A DNA stretch of 64,000 nt, from assembly GCA_963971405.1 (NCBI GenBank), contig OZ020485.1, positions 6,572,001 to 6,636,000 on the forward strand, read 5' to 3'. The DNA is from Psococerastis gibbosa. Its lineage: Eukaryota > Arthropoda > Insecta > Psocodea > Psocidae. Below, in pieces: positions 49,739 to 62,252 of this stretch (positions within the stretch are counted from its first letter, which is position 1; the number at the start of each line of letters is the position of its first letter). The notes below the pieces were generated by a model, which saw only the letters and a list, made by a program, of their open reading frames with translations, did no database searches and was not told the origin of the DNA. Both the position numbers and the translations under genes were made by a program.

Positions 49739-52700
49739 ATGAACGGATTAACGCTTAGTGAATTGTGCTGCTTGTTTTGTTGTCCGCCGTGCCCATCAAA
49801 AATTGCGGCCAAACTCGCCTTCTTACCACCCGAGCCTACCTACTCATTTCAAATGGGCGAAGTAGGTTCGAAATACATGCTGTGCTTCACGGAAAACGCA
49901 GAATGGCAGTACTCGGACCGGGATAAAGAGAATTTGGAAGGTTTTTACACAAGGACTGCAAGGGGCAACACGATAGCTTGTTTGTTTGTGAGGTGTAGTC
50001 CAAATGCTCGTTTCACTATTCTCTTTTCTCATGGAAATGCTGTTGATCTTGGACAAATGAGTAGTTTTTACCTTGGACTCGGGTCCAGAATTAATTGCAA
50101 TATATTTAGTTTTGATTACTCGGGCTACGGTGTGAGCACAGGCAAGCCCTCAGAGAAGAACTTATACGCCGATATTGACGCTGCCTGGCAAGCATTAAGG
50201 ACGGGCTACGGCATTAGCCCCGAAAATATTATTTTGTATGGACAAAGTATAGGCACAGTTCCAACCATTGATCTCGCCAGTCGCTATGAAGTAGGAGCAG
50301 TGGTATTGCACTCACCTTTAATGTCTGGAATGCGCGTCGCTTTTCCAAAGACAAAGCGAACATGGTTTTTTGATGCCTTTCCCAGGTAAGCTGTCCATTT
50401 ATAAATTTATAAACTGTGTTTTTATTTACATCGGCTTCGGAGTTAAGACGCTCAGACGTGCTTCAGGAGACAGTGCTTGAAGGTACCTATCTAGTTGACA
50501 CCATTTATTAGTAATTTACTGCAAATTGTTGGCATTATTTAATATTGCATGGCTCGATTGCACAAAAATTAATCTAACCTATTTTGAACGAGAGTTGGCC
50601 ATTCCATTGAGAAATTCATACTTTCGTATAGGCTAATGAAGAAGTGTATTTAAATTACTTTTTCTTAAATATTGTACGGTAAGATCTAGATAATCTTTCA
50701 TGCAGTCGCAACTTTGGAATACAGCATTTAGGCCCGGTACACACGGACGATTCTCCCAGTCGCGATTTACCGACGTCTTTTAAAGTGTGGGGATTGGGCT
50801 CGATGAATAAATAAATAAATAAGGACTTTTTTGTTGTTGTTCAATTACTAATTCAACCTAGCGGAGTTAGGGCTATAAAGCCCTCTCTTACACTCAACTA
50901 GGACGGCCCGACCGCCTGCTTTACATGCCCTCTGAAGCATGGCCAGAAAATGTAAGAAGTGTAGGACTCGAACCAACAACTTTTCGGGTGAAAGTCAGAG
51001 GCCGTACCACTACTCTACATGTCTTGACTGGTCGGTGCAAAACCGCAAAGTCTAATTCAGAAGATTTCTATGGTCTGGCCGGGTGTCTATGGGATACCCG
51101 TGCACTTTTGTGTCGGCGGTCGGCCGAAATGTCGAGAGCTCGACTCGACTCGACTTCTGCTAGCCGTACTTCTATAATGGACAAGCCTTCGCCTAATCAC
51201 TTCTGGGAGAATCGTCTGTGTGTACCAGGCCTTAGTGTGGAAATGACTCATTGGATGATATCACTACAATTATATAGCTAGTGACTTATCTGTCTATGCA
51301 TTCAAAGCAAAACCAACACATTTGAATCAGCTGTGTATAAATAAACATTGAGCACGAAAGAATAGAATAGATACTTTATTTTCTTCTTGAGCCAGAATAG
51401 GCCGATGCTTTTGCATATCGTGTAAAACAGCAAATGGCAATGGTTTGACATAGAGTATCCCTGCTTAATCCCAGAAACGCCGTTCTGCCATGGCAGGTAA
51501 AAAAGGGCAGACATTAAGTTTAAGGATGTTTTTTAAACCCGAAATCGCCGTGTTAAATTCAAGCTTAACGCATCGATTTTTATTATATTCATAATCTTAA
51601 TTATTTCCCCCTGTTACAATTTGCTTTGTGTCATATTTTTGCTTAGCTATAGGCCTCGTATCCATAACAACGCAAACTGGTAGATTTTGATGGTAACTAT
51701 CAGTGCTCAGTGAATGCTGCTCAAATTGCATTCGACATGATATTTCCAGCAAGTAGTGTGTTTCCTGAGTGATAAATCTGGGTGGATCGGATTAAGCAAT
51801 GTAGGGGCTTATGTAACGGAGCTGTAGACAAACAATATGATGTTCTTTAAAAAATTACAGGATGCACTCTGAGAATAAAGGGGTTAAACAGATTGGATTG
51901 GAAACGAATGGTGATGACAAGGCGGGGCGGGCGCGGGGGTAAGGGGAGAGAGGCTCCGGAAATAACCATCATTTACACATGATTGACGGCTTCAGCATCA
52001 TTTCATATTTCACAAACCTCGTTCATTCCCATTCCCAAACCAAAGTTCACACACCTCCTGCCACTACAATGAATTATTTGGGTGTAGTGCTTTATTTTAA
52101 AATCAACCTCAACTTTTCCTGCCACTCTGTGGCTCTAACTAAATCACACTCGACGTGTCAAGTTTGAGCCCTAATTAATTTAGTCTTCCTTCCACTTCTT
52201 CGTTTAAATGTGCCTTCAGTAATATGCGCTATTCGGGAGGTTTTTTATTGAAGGTTTAGTCAGCCGAAATTAAATTAATTTTTTTATTTAAGCAATATAC
52301 CTAGGTACTGTGTGTAGCTATAAGTTTTTAATGATTGATAGTTCTAATAAATATAAGAATTAAAGCCAGCGATTTATCAACATTGAATTTGTGTAGAACT
52401 GGCTTGTTTTTTGTTTACAACAATTTAAGCCAGATAGGTTGTTTGTATCTTAGTAGGAGTGGTCCTATAAAGAGCTTAATTCGAAGCCACCCCACAATGC
52501 CAGGGTAATGAAGCCACAAAAGTGACAAATTAGCGTTAACCCTTTGAAGGGCAGAAGATTTTTTTTTCTAATTTTGTATTATTATGCTGCACAGTTAGAC
52601 TACTCGTGGTGTGGCATTGAAAACTTCTCAAACTAATTAATTTCTATCTTTTAGGCGGGGTTTCCACATACGTCAATCGTCAATGAGAAATATGGTTTTG

Positions 52701-55700: not shown

Positions 55701-58641
55701 AACTTGTGACGTTTTAGATTTTCAATTGTTTACTTAAATTTTGTTTGATTTCAGTATTGACAAAGTGCCTAAAGTGACGTCTCCTGTCTTGGTGATCCAT
55801 GGTACAAAAGACGAAGTGATAGATCACTCGCATGGTGAGGCAATCTACGAGCGTTGCCCTGGCGCTGTTGAACCCCTCTGGGTGGAGGTGAGTACTCCCA
55901 TTCTAACATCTAACTATAACCAATTTAGAAAGTCACAATAATTACTACCCGACCACCATTTGGAACACTTATAAAAATCAAATAAACTCGTGCTCCGCTT
56001 AGGCGGCTATTCCACCGGCGATTTTACTTCATATTTGATTTTGTGAATTAGACATTATTAATAAGTCTACTATATTATAACTTAATTTATAATAGATAAG
56101 TTAAGTATCTACCTAATAGTCTCCTTAAAACAACTATGTAATATTTCAACACATAATAAAAGTTGACTTTACTAGGGGTATTCACTGTGTTTCGATTTCC
56201 CCAAGGGAATAGAACGCCAGTTTTTCTACGGTAGAAAAATAATGCCATAAGGAAATGTATTTCAAAACATTCCCACTTTCCCCAACTACTTTGGTTGGGC
56301 AAACTGAGCTTTGGAAATCGAAAACGCCAAACGGCCATATTTGTCGTTGTTTTGCATTTGAATTTGGTTTTTATTTTTATTTAATTAATAAAAAAAGGAA
56401 ACATGGCAAGAGGTGGACTACAGCACAGCAGATGTTCATAAGTTAAGCGAAAGCAAAGAAACTTTAGAAGTAGGTTAGGTTAGGTCGGTCAACAATAGGT
56501 GCTATTTCATGGCAATGTTTTGTGTGTTACCTGTTAAACATGAAACAGGTTCCTCATAGATGGGTTGCATAGTGTCGTCATTATCAAGGAAACCCCCTCT
56601 GTCATGTTGTTGGAGTAAAAGGGTCTGTCGCGATCGATAGCTTGATATCTTGTTGGTAAGCAATTGTACACATTAATATTTCAATGTTCATTTCCCTGCG
56701 AATTCCTTTCACGAGCAGTTTCGCTTTGGTCAACAGTTTTATCGCTCTGCAGGGAAATGTTTTACCAGTTTTGCTGTAAAGTTCAATTTTTTTTTTTTTT
56801 TTACGATGAACTATTGTTTCGTTGGCAGTACTGTAGTTTTGTTTAATACTTATTAGAAATACCTGCATACTCAATGTCCGGCTCTCATCGTACCGGGAGA
56901 GTAAACATTAACAATTATTTAAGCCCACATGCTAAATTACTGCATAAGGGTTGTGATTAAATTACATTACGGATGACAGTTCTTTCCCATGAAACCTTCG
57001 ACTTCTGCCTCTAGGGGTCAATTATACTAAAACCTGTAATGGGCTAGATAGAAGAAGATAGTGATGCTTCCTTTCGTTAAGCCCAGTGTGAATATTAAGT
57101 ATTATATTTAAATTTGGCGACTTCGGTGGCAAGGTGGTAGCGTGCTTGTACTTGTGCGAGTCTCCACACACCTTGCGTCGGAGACGTGTCATAACTCGAC
57201 ACAAGTACTGAATAGCTCACTTAGTGAGGCGATTGAAGAGGTTTATCGGATACATTCATTAAATTGTTTGTACGTGATTAACCTTTTATCTATAAAAAAA
57301 ATTGTTAAGTTTTGGATTTGGAAGTAGTCTATTTTCAGAGCATTTACCTGTGGATGTCTCAGGTTGAAATATTTAACAAACAAGGCGTGACTTTTAATCG
57401 TTATTAATGGTCATGGAATTTATGTTCAATATCGAAATCGTTGGCTTATTACTAATCAGTGACCTTGGTTTTTAAGGCTTGTACGTGGTTTGTCCTTAGC
57501 CACTGGCAGTCAACGGTTAATTTTGTAAACACTGACCATTGTAATATGTATTGACCTTGTACCACTACTCCAATGCTAGATTTTGTGATTCATCAATTGG
57601 TAGGCTACATAGCTACTCGTCGGAAATATAACATTGCCCCCTTGATTCCCCTTCGCTGAAGAATCTAGTTCCTTTTGAAAATTGAAATGCCTTGAAATGG
57701 AACGCAAAAAAAAAAAAAAAAAAAAAAAATAGTTTCTGTGCACTGCTACCACTTAGAAAATTTGAATACTGTATTAAGAAGATCAGTTTTATCTTACATA
57801 TTCCATTTTCTCATGGTTTGCTGTGATGTTACGGGATGGATAGCCCTTCTTCATTGTTTCTTAATACACATTTTGTAATTTCAATGCAGTTGACACAGAA
57901 AAAAAATTTTGCTGTTGGTATCTAAAATTCTTATTAATTTATAAAATTCTGTGTATTAATGAGTATGTGAATGCGATGCAATCCGCCAGTTCCTTTTTGT
58001 TCATCTGGGCATTGAAAATGCGGTGGGGGGGGGGGGGGGGTATTGTGCATAAAGAAAGAAAAGAAAATGTGGATATTTTGAATCAAAATATCCCCTCATC
58101 TTCTGTTTATTCGTCTGTAACTTTGATGAGGAAGGTTTTTCTATTGTTAGGAATATTGTTAGTTGAGAGTAGAGATGCATTTTTCTCGTTTTCTAATAAA
58201 CTCTTGTCTACTTTTATGTGCATATTTCCTGCGAATCGCGTGGCACAGCTGACAGGAAAGTTAGCTTTAATTGTATTTACCATATTTACACACACTCGTT
58301 CGCTACATCAGATTTGGCAGAGCAGCATCGAAACTGGAAGGTAGATTAAGACCAGGTACACAAGAACGATTCGCTGGCTATTGTCGTGGGAACAAACTGG
58401 GCTGAAAAAAAACTGCGGTCCATTTACTCCCATGACAAATTTCTTAGTGAATCACTAGCGTTCGAATCGTCCGTGTGTGTACTGGGCCTAAGAAATGAGG
58501 CGTTAGTTGAAAAACGAAATTTCCACGTGAACATGAAAAATGTACTTTTGTCAACAGGGCGCTGGGCATAATAACGTGGAGCTGTACCCTGAGTACTTGG
58601 AGCGACTAAAGCAATTCATTGAAGTGGAATTGACCAACTGA
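49739..58641 (+). CDS. ABHD17: ABHD17-type protein depalmitoylase (three exons)
   Basis: Exons 49739-50385, 55755-55887 and 58558-58641 give 864 nt, 287 residues plus stop; vertebrate ABHD17 proteins are about 290-330 residues. All junctions are GT-AG with matching phase. The N-terminus [20 protein letters not shown] carries a Cys cluster (residues 10, 11, 14, 15, 18) that is palmitoylated in the family and tethers it to membranes. The alpha/beta hydrolase fold shows [10 protein letters not shown] (oxyanion region), YGQSIGT with nucleophile Ser170, HGTKDEVID with Asp235, and GAGHN with His264. Relatives remove palmitate from Ras and synaptic proteins. No residue of the triad is missing. Introns of 5.4 and 2.7 kb contain several MITEs. 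The frame stays open past the stop (see findings). Confidence 0.95.
50731..51231. mobile_element. Harbinger-type element with nested SINE, in ABHD17 intron 1
   Basis: Terminal repeats GGCCCGGTACACACGGACGA and its near complement are flanked by TTA (50728-50730, 51232-51234). About 220 bp of the 501 bp is the SINE at 50804-51026. A related short copy sits in intron 2 at 58350-58488. Confidence 0.85.
50804..51026 (-). mobile_element. tRNA-derived SINE, copy 3 (nested)
   Basis: The minus strand shows TAGAGTAGTGGTACGGCC (A box), GGTTCGAGTCC (B box), the shared body and a (TTAT)n tail at the left. The most complete head of the three copies. Confidence 0.88.
51302..52650. other. ABHD17 intron 1, no other gene seen
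   Basis: Frames are short. No splice-bounded coding exon recognised. Confidence 0.5.
52654..52795. mobile_element. Harbinger-type MITE in ABHD17 intron 1
   Basis: Ends GGCGGGGTTTCCACATACGT are inverted at the right end and flanked by TTA (52651-52653, 52796-52798). The family core GTGGTAGCAGACATTTTTAG is present. Confidence 0.9.
52966..53665. repeat. TGCTTTCC-family repeat, complete copy
   Basis: Ends are the 16-bp inverted pair TGCTTTCCAATTTATA. It is about 700 bp, aligning over most of its length to 34773-35345. Short frames (for example 53002-53232) are similar in both copies, but no domain is recognised. It lies in ABHD17 intron 1. Confidence 0.82.
53670..54805. other. ABHD17 intron 1, no other gene seen
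   Basis: No long frame, repeat boundary or RNA gene recognised. Confidence 0.5.
54811..55195. mobile_element. Inverted-repeat element in ABHD17 intron 1
   Basis: A ~45-bp inverted pair starts GCAGCCCGATCATGGCGATT and encloses about 300 bp without coding. No clear target duplication. A non-autonomous DNA element is likely. Confidence 0.75.
55888..58345. other. ABHD17 intron 2, no other gene seen
   Basis: It contains poly-A (57709-57729) and poly-G (58024-58040) runs. Frames at 57967-58344 cross the poly-G run and show no motif. Confidence 0.5.
58350..58488. mobile_element. Harbinger-type MITE just before ABHD17 exon 3
   Basis: Ends GACCAGGTACACAAGAACGA and the complement of GGCCCAGTACACACACGGAC are flanked by TAA (58347-58349, 58489-58491). 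It ends 69 bp before the exon 3 boundary. Confidence 0.8.
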
Positions 58642-59232
58642 CAACTACTGTCAGGGGGTGACGACCCCGAGCAAGAGGGCTCGGTCGTCAGCTCGGCGGG
58701 CACGACCAGTTCCATCACGGAGAAGCTGCTGTAGCACGAGGCAGGCCACCCGGCCTGCTCGGAACCCGCAGACCCAGACGACTCGCTCACCATCCGCACG
58801 GACCCTAGTGAGGTTAAGCCACTGCTCGAAGAGACGCCCACCCTCCTAAGCCCCATCGCTGACTTCCGTCTCCTCAAATCCGAACAGTACTCAGCTTTGT
58901 TCGAGACTGCGTGTGAGATCGAGTACTATGCGTGTCACAAAACACTGCCTGAAAGCCGACCCTCATCACAAAAACGAAAACCGGGCACGCGAAAGTGTGT
59001 TCCAACGGGAAAAAGTGTTTCCTTAAACTCAAGTCCCGTATGGTCGGCTGTTTCTGGCTCGCCTTCGACTACGAATCGGCAGCGCTCAAATGACTGCAGC
59101 GCCGTTGAGGTGGAAGCTCGTACTAGCACTAGTTCAGTGAAGGACCTGTGGACGACGTCTACTGGAAAGGAGTCGCCGCCGCCGACTGCCAAGACTGACG
59201 TAGATCCGGAAGTTACTGAGACTACTTGTTAA
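58642..59232 (+). other. In-frame extension after the ABHD17 stop
   Basis: The ABHD17 frame continues 30 codons to a TAG at 58732-58734, then 165 codons to TAA at 59230-59232. By hand count third-position GC is 24/30 and then 50/72, against 15/30 and 32/72 at second positions, the pattern of selected coding sequence and unlike the AT-rich surroundings. The peptide is Ser/Thr/Pro-rich with acidic clusters and an ALFETACEIEYYACHK core. Alternatives are a GC-rich 3' UTR or an ancestral longer C-terminus now cut off. Other frames are also fairly open, which weakens the frame-length argument. Confidence 0.55.
58659..58690 (+). promoter_or_regulatory. Stem-loop downstream of the ABHD17 stop codon
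   Basis: TGACGA then CCGAGC pair with GCTCGG then TCGTCA, giving 12 bp with a 2-nt CC bulge and the loop AAGAGG. It starts 17 nt after the TGA. Such structures stimulate stop-codon readthrough in known cases. Confidence 0.65.
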
Positions 59233-61577
59233 TAATGCGTATTATGTCTGTCAAATGCGAAATCTCAGAGAGGCATTATAGGACAATTTTTATTCGCAGA
59301 AATGAAATACAAATGCTGTTGTAAGAGAAGTTTACGCTTTGTAGTTGGTCGACATGATACGTTGCCGCACTACTATACCAGTCATTGAGCTAAAATCAGA
59401 ATTCATTTATAAATGCTGGCTTACAAATGTTACGCCAGTCCTGGTGGTTGTCAAGACACTTGCAACGCCCGGATAATGCCGTGCACAGTACGTCAATATC
59501 GTATGTTATCATGTAACAACAATTAGAGCCGCAGACTATCTATTTAACTTTGTAGAAAGTCTATACAGTACTATACTATCTTGGAGCTGTCTACATCGAC
59601 CAGTTCGATCTGATTGACTTGCCATTGAAGACATGACTGTCTTTGCTAACAAGGTTAAGCAGTTGTTTTCAACAGTTGATTAATTGGCAATGGCCATAGT
59701 ATTCGAATGATTGGGATACACTGCTGTGATCCCAATAATTATGATGTTCAAAGGATCCCAAGACCTAGGCCAGCTTTAACTCTCTAAATAATAATGAATA
59801 ATAACAGGCAGGGGAATCAGAGAAAGGAAGATATGGAAAAATTTACGGGAAAGGGATTTGAATGCCGGGATGGTATGCACCAAATCCGTCGCCTCCCTTC
59901 CCTATCATGTACGTTAGCTCTTCTTCTTCTAATGCCTCTTCTATCGAAGATTGGCGACCATCATTGCAATTTGGATGGTGGAGACTGCTGCTCTGAAAGG
60001 GAAGTCGTGCTCTTGCCAAACCAATGCCTCAGGTTTTCCAATCAGGATCTTCTTCTGCGAGCCTTCTGTATTTTATCTTCACTTAGATTATTACATACAG
60101 AAGGCGATACTTTTCGTTCCTCATCACATTGCCGAAGTATGTTAGTTTCCGTTTCTTAACCGCCAGCAGCAACTCGGCTTCTGTATCCATTCGCCTCAGG
60201 ACCTCAGACTCTTGACACTATTGATCATTAGTCGAATATAGCCTTTACAGCTAGAGTTAGGATATTGCACGGTGCAATAACTAATGTATTTAATGTGTTT
60301 CAGATTTTAGCTCTTTGTCGTCTAATATTTTATTGTAAATACCGAAAATGCAATAATGTAAAAAAGTATCCAAATAGCACATTACAAACAAGTTAATATT
60401 GGCCTTTCGTCAAAATTATTTTTCTACGCACATGAATGGATGAATTTAATATTGAACGTGTCTGTAAGGCAGAGATTTCAAAGTATTTTGTAAACAATTG
60501 ATGGATGACTAAGCCGATTTAACGAAATTAATTAATTACTCGTTCTTCAATCGCATAGGTATGAAAATGGTCGGAAAAATTCATAAAAAATGCATGCTTT
60601 CGCAGTATATTTACATTTTTGCCCATATTTGGCTACACCAAGCACGTAAGTAGGGGGGGGGGGGGACTGTCAAAATTAAAATATGCGTATTGGCAATACA
60701 ATGAACTAGATAGCTCAGGTTTAGAACACCACACAAAAATATACATATACGTATACATGTACCTGCCTGAGTTACACAAACATAAAAATCGGAAAACTTG
60801 AAAATGGAAAGGTTTAATATGTTATTCATCCTTATGCGTAGAAAAATTGAGCTCTCACTAAGTAATCATTGTCGGGTAGTATTTTCGTTTGCCTGTAAAT
60901 ATTCTAAACACATTGCTTTTATGGGATTTCTCCAACACTTGTGCCAAAATGCTTTGGTAATTATTCTAGCTTTAGTTTATTGTTGATTATCGGACATTAT
61001 GCACAGTCTCTGTGTATGTAAGGTTTTCTTTTGCAAAATACTTTTTCTAGTGAACCTTATCATTTACTTTCCAACTCCAGGTATGTTGTAGGTGCTAAAT
61101 AGACTAAAAAAACCGTGCAGGATGCTCTTGATTTTGAAGAAATTATCGATAATACCGTGCCCCAATGCATTGCACACAATATCATTATTATTGTGTTGTG
61201 TTTTATTGGTATGCCCATTCTAGGTTATTCAATTACCCATCGATCGATCCCGTACTTTGGGATAGGGGTAAGCCAGAAAAAAATCACTTGTACACCAAAA
61301 GTTACATTTTTACCCATTAAGCGGTTGATCTGAAGTTTTCAAGTGGCTTTTTGAATATAGTCTATGTAATTTATTGTTTTTTTTCTTAATTTAGATGTGA
61401 CAGAAATTTTCGCGACGTTTTGTACAATTTGTAATGTGGAATTTTACCAAAAGACGAAAAAAAGGCCCTAACAACTAACAAGTGCACTTTTATGTCTTCT
61501 ACATAGCTTGTTATGAGGATGAATTAGTTAATAAACATAATAGTCTCCTTAGTAACTTTGTAAAACTTGCTGTCACT
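59233..61577. other. ABHD17 3' region and intergenic; no other gene seen
   Basis: The frame at 59794-60159 has no recognised motif. A poly-G run is at 60653-60664. No convincing AATAAA directly follows the extension, so the transcript end is not fixed. Confidence 0.4.
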
Positions 61578-62252
61578 CATTGTTAAAATTTACTTTGTTT
61601 AGTCTTACAATAAAATTAAAAACACAACCGGTTTCGGCTCACGCCATCGTCAAGTGCGATTGAAAAAAGGTAAACAAAAGGTATGCAAGCTAAAACAAAA
61701 TAAAATAAAACTCATTGTCAGGATAATACACAGCATCGCATAAAGTAAATAAATTTAAATTGAACAATTAAACATCAACCAATGGAAGCGTCAACAAGGG
61801 GGAACTACTTAAAAAGGTTATGTCATTAAGTAACGTTTTGTTTTTAACCATGGCTTCCCTAGCCCAACATATAAACACCCACAACCATGCCTGTGATTTC
61901 GATAATTTTAAGATCCTACATGTAGCCAACAAGGGGAAACTTCTTGATAATTTAGAAACCATTGAGATTAGGGAAGCTATGGTTAAAAACAAAACGTTAC
62001 TTAATGACATAACCTTTTTAAGTAGTTCCCCCTTGTTGACGCTTCCATTGGTTGATGTTTAATTGTTCAATTTAAATTTATTTACTTTATGCGATGCTGT
62101 GTATTATCCTGACAATGAGTTTTATTTTATTTTGTTTTAGCTTGCATACCTTTTGTTTACCTTTTTTCAATCGCACTTGACGATGGCGTGAGCCGAAACC
62201 GGTTGTGTTTTTAATTTTATTGTAAGACTAAACAAAGTAAATTTTAACAATG
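61578..62252. mobile_element. Penelope-like terminal palindrome with GIY-YIG remnant
   Basis: Near-identical inverted arms of about 284 bp (61578-61861 and 61969-62252) enclose a ~107-bp loop. The plus frame across the loop reads AQHINTHNHACDFDNFKILH, then NKGKLLDNLETIEI, the C-terminal part of the GIY-YIG endonuclease of Penelope-like elements (QH, H, FKILH, LD-x-LE-x-x-EI). Both arms contain ACCGGTTTCGG. The layout fits two inverted Penelope ends joined head to head. Confidence 0.75.
62177..62202 (+). ncRNA. Hammerhead-like core, diverged
   Basis: TTGACGA (consensus CUGANGA, first base changed), then GGC-GTGA-GCC as a stem II with a GNRA loop, then GAAA and CCGG. The mirror copy is on the minus strand at about 61642-61617. 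The first-base change would probably abolish cleavage. Confidence 0.45.

What the first reader, a model, noticed from the sequence alone, without database searches (positions are those of the whole stretch)
58558..59232. ABHD17 frame stays open beyond its stop: candidate stop-codon readthrough
After the expected TGA at 58639-58641 the same frame runs 30 codons to a TAG and 165 more to a TAA. TGA followed by C is a known leaky context, and readthrough is common in arthropods (established for Drosophila). By hand count GC at third positions is 80% then 69%, against 50% then 44% at second positions, which is coding-like. A C-terminal extension rich in Ser, Thr and acidic residues could alter localisation or regulation of the depalmitoylase. 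Two stops would have to be passed for the full product. Low stop density in other frames of this GC-rich block is a caution.
Basis: partly seen in the sequence, partly recalled or inferred. Interest (0 to 1): 0.88.

Follow-up and report, generated by a model that had tools for sequence, protein, structure and literature searches.

The report
Likely readthrough tail on ABHD17
In this gene, probably from an insect, for an enzyme that strips fatty acids off proteins, the reading frame carries on past two stop signals into a stretch that matches louse proteins and others of unknown origin, so the animal probably sometimes ignores the stops and makes a longer enzyme.

Summary
The anatomy is exact: ABHD17 ends at TGA 58639-58641; its frame runs 30 codons to TAG and 165 to TAA. 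Homology answers the low-stop-density caution: translated past both stops, the frame finds nine proteins (best single-sequence E 6.7e-9; nine with a profile), two from the louse Polyplax serrata. All share a core QYS[AT]LFETACEIEY..HK and end in ETTC; each matches the window only here, in the ABHD17 frame. In the own 409-Mb genome, ABHD17 exon A has one full match and the extension one match. The extension has no AUG; splice sites that could bypass the stops score weakly. The TGA is followed by CAACTA, a CARYYA readthrough motif, and hairpins. Best explanation: readthrough of TGA, then TAG, giving a 484-residue ABHD17 with a mostly disordered tail. Coding ancestry past the stops is shown; readthrough is inferred, since no relative's DNA and no RNA or ribosome data could be reached. 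The 30 codons between the stops lack reliable homology, so the TAG may be lineage-specific. New member of a known kind, unusually long.

The parts
49739..50385 (+). ABHD17 coding exon A (first ATG; N-terminal Cys cluster, GQSIGT motif)
   Evidence: donor score 11.8
55755..55887 (+). ABHD17 coding exon B (DEVID motif)
   Evidence: tblastn with a recalled human-like fragment; splice sites
58558..58638 (+). ABHD17 terminal exon, end of the first ORF (GAGHN ... VELTN)
58639..58641 (+). first stop, TGA, candidate readthrough codon
58642..58647 (+). CAACTA, fits the CARYYA readthrough hexanucleotide, directly after the TGA
   Evidence: 6 of 2202 TGAs in the window (both strands, this one included) have it
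58642..58731 (+). extension part 1, 30 codons, GC 64%; no reliable homology to relatives
58660..58689 (+). predicted RNA hairpin (7+4 bp) starting 18 nt after the TGA
   Evidence: z -3.07 for 58630-58760; z -3.6 for 58617-58716
58732..58734 (+). second in-frame stop, TAG (followed by CAC)
58735..59229 (+). extension part 2, 165 codons; tblastn matches of relatives lie between 58780 and 59139
58740..58759 (+). predicted 8-bp RNA hairpin starting 5 nt after the TAG
58798..58827 (+). TDPSEVKPLL motif (TDPSE in 6 of 10 sequences, KPLL in 9 of 10)
58873..58941 (+). conserved core LKSEQYSALFETACEIEYYACHK; predicted helix over 58879-58938
59218..59229 (+). C-terminal ETTC, in 10 of 10 sequences
59230..59235 (+). 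TAATAA, end of the extension; the relatives also end in ETTC

Best explanation
The region is a conserved C-terminal extension of ABHD17, made when a fraction of ribosomes read through the TGA (CARYYA context, hairpin downstream) and, in this species, also the TAG. The main product is the 287-residue membrane-anchored depalmitoylase; the minor one is a 484-residue form whose Ser/Thr/acidic, mostly disordered tail holds one conserved predicted helix and a fixed C-terminal ETTC. I infer that the tail is a targeting or docking module (a PDZ-type ligand, or a second S-acylation site at the terminal Cys) that changes where the enzyme acts. Shown: coding ancestry in the ABHD17 frame past both stops, one locus found in the genome, no AUG. 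Inferred: readthrough as the route, passage of the TAG, and the tail's function.
For: Homology past both stops: single-sequence search, 2 proteins at E 6.7e-9 and 8.2e-4; profile search, 9 proteins. Nine of nine match the window at E <= 1 only between 58780 and 59139, in the ABHD17 frame. The core beats 500 of 500 shuffles in 9 of 9 comparisons, the last 12 residues give p 0.002-0.048 in 9 of 9. Own genome: exon A has one 100% match plus two partial ones at 41% and 28%; P0001 has one match, here. No Met in 195 sense codons; relatives have 8 Met in 2249 residues after the first, 5 of 9 have none. Splice scores by approximate recalled matrices: real donors 11.7-11.8, real acceptors 7.2 and 8.4; donors in the terminal exon before the TGA at most 0.5, later donors at most 6.2, acceptors at most 4.2; the one phase-0 acceptor scoring above 0 before the conserved part scores 0.1. 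TGA-CARYYA: 6 of 2202 TGAs. CARYYA after UGA gave about 15% readthrough in an OPRL1 reporter (PMC4132726, passages). Fold z-score most extreme around the TGA. GC steps from 43% to 67% at the TGA and from 48% to 35% at the TAA (60-nt windows). The first AATAAA/ATTAAA after the TGA is at 60675, so the ABHD17 mRNA plausibly contains the extension. No fused protein of about 286-908 aa was found, as expected if annotation stops at the TGA.
Against: No relative's DNA could be read, so it is unknown whether their open frames follow an ABHD17 stop in frame. Polyplax has the homolog as a separate hypothetical protein. The 30 codons between TGA and TAG lack significant similarity to 8 of 9 relatives (P0008 p 0.028, uncorrected). 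The variable tail after the core is significant with only 4 of 9 relatives. Two stops must be passed, and TAG CAC has no known leaky motif. Codon-position GC in the last two thirds of the second block is not coding-like. The window departs from residues common in relatives (IETTC to TETTC, DVWEP to DLWTT), which allows relaxed constraint. GC also reaches 50% in one 60-nt window after the TAA, 59420-59479. How fully the protein database covers insect annotation was not tested, so the absence of fused proteins is weak evidence.
Confidence: 0.68

Rival explanations
1. Alternative transcript: the extension is a coding exon reached by splicing from an upstream exon, of ABHD17 or another gene, or an optional intron removes a stop; no readthrough.
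For: Detectable homology starts at 58780, just after weak AG sites at 58772 and 58778. A weak frame-keeping intron 58658-58771 would remove the TAG (donor 5.8, acceptor 4.2). Polyplax has it as a separate gene model.
Against: Candidate sites score well below the real ones. The putative intron has 68% GC against 36-38% in the gene's two introns. P0001 and P0007 look alike upstream of that point, by eye. N-terminal pieces of P0001, P0004, P0005 and P0007 have no convincing match elsewhere in the window (best E 0.39). No fused product was found.
Confidence: 0.14
2. Relict: ancestors read through a single stop, but here the TAG fixed a truncation, so only a 30-residue extension (or none) is made and the rest is decaying.
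For: No relative could be shown to have the TAG; the window departs from several otherwise common residues; GC periodicity fades in the last two thirds.
Against: 165 codons stay open (0.1% of shuffles for this frame), the core and the ETTC end are intact, GC falls at the final TAA, and a predicted hairpin follows the TAG.
Confidence: 0.1
3. A separate downstream cistron, started at a non-AUG codon or by reinitiation on the ABHD17 mRNA.
For: CTG is the third codon after the TGA and the frame holds 6 CTG, 2 GTG, 1 TTG and 9 ACG codons; relatives' entries begin with Met.
Against: No AUG in frame in 195 codons; the nine entries' first residues fall in four different alignment columns, and some may be mechanical start choices; the CTG has a poor start context (recalled rules).
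Confidence: 0.04
4. A-to-I editing turns TGA and TAG into TGG (Trp), so the full-length protein is made from edited mRNA.
For: Both inner stops are one A-to-G change from TGG, while the final TAA is not; both A's lie in predicted stems; TAG is a good ADAR triplet (recalled).
Against: The stems are short for ADAR, and the A of TGA has a 5' G, which is disfavoured (both recalled). No RNA data.
Confidence: 0.03
5. Chance open frame in a GC-rich 3' UTR.
For: Low stop density in one other forward and one reverse frame (4 and 2 stops in 195 codons); 165 open codons in any of six frames in 1.6% of shuffles.
Against: Homology to nine proteins, in this frame only.
Confidence: 0.01

Closest known systems
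Stop-codon readthrough in Drosophila and Anopheles (PMC5100048: abstract, sections 9 and 17, part 1 of 2 of section 5, and passages seen)
   Same: Protein-like conservation in frame past a TGA followed by C; RNA structure 3' of the stop; double readthrough has precedent (35 candidates in the A. gambiae set)
   Different: No codon-substitution score here; stop conservation across species unknown; the extension is long (195 codons; relatives' entries 138-333 residues), whereas more than half of functional regions are estimated there as under 10 codons
Drosophila bi (PMC3609751, passages)
   Same: TGA followed by a CARYYA hexamer, then CTG
   Different: Other gene; hexamer CAATTA there, CAACTA here
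TMV-type CARYYA readthrough and OPRL1-CARYYA reporters (PMC4132726, passages)
   Same: CARYYA directly 3' of the stop; works with UGA as well as UAG
   Different: Virus or reporter context; nothing measured in this species
ABHD17 depalmitoylases (PMC4755737, passages)
   Same: N-terminal Cys cluster, hydrolase with active-site Ser
   Different: No C-terminal extension is mentioned in the passages seen

Membership tests
Programmed stop-codon readthrough (insect type) | Protein-coding conservation in frame after the stop | tested here: met
   Nine relatives match the frame between 58780 and 59139; ETTC end in 10 of 10. The first 46 codons after the TGA, the TAG among them, are not covered by these matches.
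Programmed stop-codon readthrough (insect type) | Synonymous-biased substitution pattern (PhyloCSF) | not testable with these tools
   No DNA of relatives: 0 relatives of the extension in genome contigs and viral contigs.
Programmed stop-codon readthrough (insect type) | Same stop codon conserved across species | not testable with these tools
   Only proteins of relatives are held.
Programmed stop-codon readthrough (insect type) | Leaky stop context (TGA C, CARYYA or CUAG) | tested here: met
   TGA CAACTA; 6 of 2202 TGAs in the window share CARYYA. The second stop, TAG CAC, has no such motif.
Programmed stop-codon readthrough (insect type) | No downstream ATG explains the coding signal | tested here: met
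   No ATG in frame over 58558-59232.
Programmed stop-codon readthrough (insect type) | No alternative splicing explains it | tested here: inconclusive
   Only weak sites by approximate recalled matrices; no RNA data.
Programmed stop-codon readthrough (insect type) | Not selenocysteine | tested here: inconclusive
   No Rfam family at E <= 1 in 58400-61800 (that Rfam holds SECIS models is recalled); one of the two stops is TAG.
Programmed stop-codon readthrough (insect type) | Ribosomes or peptides past the stop | not testable with these tools
   No profiling or proteomic data.
ABHD17 depalmitoylase | Alpha/beta hydrolase fold | tested here: met
   PF12146 E 2e-13, 50.7 bits against a cut-off of 27.
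ABHD17 depalmitoylase | N-terminal Cys cluster and Ser/Asp/His motifs | tested here: met
   [25 protein letters not shown] in the translation; the roles of the motifs are recalled, the Cys cluster is from PMC4755737.

The most novel reading that the evidence does not exclude
A domain shared at least with lice that exists only as a readthrough product: it has no start codon of its own, is very poor in Met, sits at one locus and is kept to its last residues (ETTC) behind a leaky TGA, in this species behind two stops, giving ABHD17 a stop-controlled second address (PDZ ligand or second lipid anchor) and so tying termination efficiency to protein depalmitoylation.
Probability: 0.35. Interest if true: 0.78.

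Novelty: new member of a known kind. Interest (0 to 1): 0.62.

Why it matters
More than half of insect readthrough regions are estimated to be under 10 codons (PMC5100048, passage), and the function of most is unknown. This one is long, has an invariant end and a predicted helix, is shared at least with a louse, and sits on an enzyme type that controls palmitate turnover on signalling proteins. It offers a clear case in which the function of a readthrough tail can be tested, and a cheap way to find more: orphan proteins that align past a known gene's stop.

Tried and rejected
Chance ORF: rejected for the second block by homology. Selenocysteine: no Rfam match in 58400-61800. Paralog or pseudogene copy: exon A of ABHD17 has one full match in the genome and two partial ones at 41% and 28% identity; P0001 has one match; the tool calls such counts lower bounds, and exons B and C were not searched. 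Downstream AUG: none in frame. Known domain: no Pfam, NCBIfam or PDB match for the extension, apart from one Pfam match at E 0.25 in one of 10 members, taken as chance. Structure: AlphaFold2 mean pLDDT 57.5, pTM 0.22, one helix at residues 49-68 of the second block; no fold search was run, because a single helix would give meaningless matches. Relatives' DNA: extension profile in genome contigs and viral contigs, none; ABHD17 in viral contigs none, in genome contigs 55 loci, bacterial by their titles, not used. Tandem repeats in 57000-60500: none. Literature, main texts only: ABHD17 + readthrough lists 3 papers and 'stop codon readthrough' + depalmitoyl lists 1, all judged unrelated from title and abstract start and not opened; FAM108 + readthrough none; CG33096, the fly homolog by recall, lists one worm paper, not opened; 0 mentions of CG33096 in PMC3840789. 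Supplementary tables could not be searched, so the gene may be in one. Jungreis 2011, by a recalled DOI, is not held. The own genome has no relatives in the genome search (text).
Full report
Anatomy. The window lies at C2:6572001-6636000 of an unnamed 409-Mb assembly in 68 contigs. That it is an insect is inferred, not shown. A tblastn with a recalled ABHD17 fragment and the splice sites give a three-exon coding model: 49739-50385, 55755-55887 and 58558 onward, 287 residues to TGA 58639-58641. It has an alpha/beta hydrolase match (PF12146, E 2e-13), an N-terminal Cys cluster and the GQSIGT, DEVID and GAGHN motifs. The frame continues for 30 codons to TAG 58732-58734 and 165 codons to TAA 59230-59232, followed by another TAA.

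More than chance? From composition alone, 165 open codons in this frame occur in 0.1% of 5000 shuffles and in any of six frames in 1.6%: suggestive. Composition is sharper: GC is 43% in 58580-58639 and 67% in 58640-58699; 58642-58794 has 66%, and of 6380 sampled 153-nt windows of the whole 64 kb only 3, all overlapping it, reach that; GC falls from 48% (59180-59239) to 35% (59240-59299) at the TAA, though one later window, 59420-59479, has 50%.

Homology past the stops. The full product with X at both stops, scored over the extension only, found two proteins at E <= 10 among 1526 candidates: P0001 (6.7e-9) and P0002 (8.2e-4). A profile of these two with the window found nine at E <= 1 among 7977 candidates: the two members and seven more, at 1.1e-47 to 8.4e-18. 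Two are Polyplax serrata (louse) hypothetical proteins, RUM43_004185 and RUM44_011322; six are from the source 'lgn' and one from 'ena', without names. In the alignment of ten, the core LK..QYS.LFETACEIEY....HK, a K..S..SSP motif and the end ETTC are invariant but for gaps of one residue; KPLL is in 9 of 10 and TDPSE in 6 of 10 (three entries start later, P0007 differs). Searched back at E <= 1, nine of nine hit the window only between 58780 and 59139, in the ABHD17 frame; the ETTC end rests on the MAFFT alignment and on shuffles of the last 12 residues (p 0.002-0.048 in 9 of 9). In the own genome P0001 matches one place, this one, at E 8.5e-9; ABHD17 exon A matches one place at 100% plus two partial matches at 41% and 28% identity. 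A search for fused proteins of about 286-908 residues found none, only P0001, P0004 and P0005 again among 467 candidates.

Limits of the homology. In shuffle tests (500 each, uncorrected) the 30 codons between TGA and TAG reach p 0.028 with P0008 and nothing with the other eight; codons 32-50 reach p 0.026, 0.032 and 0.008 with P0004, P0005 and P0008 and nothing with the other six; codons 32-62 are significant with 7 of 9; the core with 9 of 9; the tail after the core with 4 of 9 (P0003, P0006, P0008, P0009). So conservation is shown from about codon 47 after the TGA, strongly only in the core. Whether the relatives have the TAG, or an ABHD17 stop upstream in frame, is unknown, since no relative's DNA was found.

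Why readthrough rather than another route. There is no ATG in frame from 58558 to 59232; relatives have 8 Met in 2249 residues after the first, five of nine having none; the sequences are related, so this is not a set of independent trials. By approximate recalled matrices, donors in the terminal exon before the TGA score at most 0.5, later donors at most 6.2 and acceptors at most 4.2, against 11.7-11.8 and 7.2-8.4 for the gene's real sites. A weak frame-keeping intron 58658-58771 exists but has 68% GC against 36-38% for the real introns. The TGA is followed by CAACTA, a CARYYA hexamer that 6 of 2202 TGAs in the window have; in an OPRL1 reporter CARYYA after UGA gave about 15% readthrough (PMC4132726, passages), and the fly gene bi has TGA CAATTA CTG (PMC3609751, passages). 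The 100-nt window 58617-58716 has the most extreme fold z-score of 43 windows (-3.6), with hairpins 18 nt after the TGA and 5 nt after the TAG; over 58630-58760, 1 of 200 shuffles folds as well. Structures 3' of the stop were predicted for 9-10% of mosquito and fly candidates against under 1% of other transcripts (PMC5100048 section 9). The first AATAAA/ATTAAA after the TGA is at 60675. Two-stop passage has precedent: 35 double-readthrough candidates (PMC5100048 section 5).

Function (inferred). AlphaFold2 gives a mostly low-confidence chain with one helix over the conserved core. An invariant C-terminus in an otherwise variable tail points to a short terminal motif; T-T-C fits a PDZ ligand loosely (recalled), and a terminal Cys could be S-acylated. 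Both are guesses. [quoted passage not shown]

Verdict. It is a new candidate of a known kind. The literature searches (main texts, mostly listings) showed no report of readthrough of this gene; supplements were not searched.

Noticed in passing
P0001-P0009 and window:58642-59229: The extension is very poor in Met (0 of 195 in the window, 8 of 2249 in relatives after the first residue), as if in-frame AUGs were selected against.
   Followed up: partly
window:58641 and 58733: Both inner stops are one A-to-I edit from TGG, unlike the final TAA; both A's lie in predicted stems.
   Followed up: no
P0004, P0005: Polyplax serrata lists the homologous ORF as a stand-alone hypothetical protein; possibly an ABHD17 extension annotated as a gene.
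   Followed up: partly
window:1063-2112 (-): Open 349-residue mariner-type transposase frame (Transposase_1 E 4.1e-26).
   Followed up: no
window:11399-12154 (-): DDE_Tnp_4 transposase frame (E 3.7e-18), PIF/Harbinger type by recall.
   Followed up: no
window:36097-37122 (-): C2H2 zinc-finger array, open 342-residue frame.
   Followed up: no
window:61768-62062: Two overlapping 96-residue ORFs on opposite strands begin and end with the same residues, which looks like a large inverted repeat.
   Followed up: no
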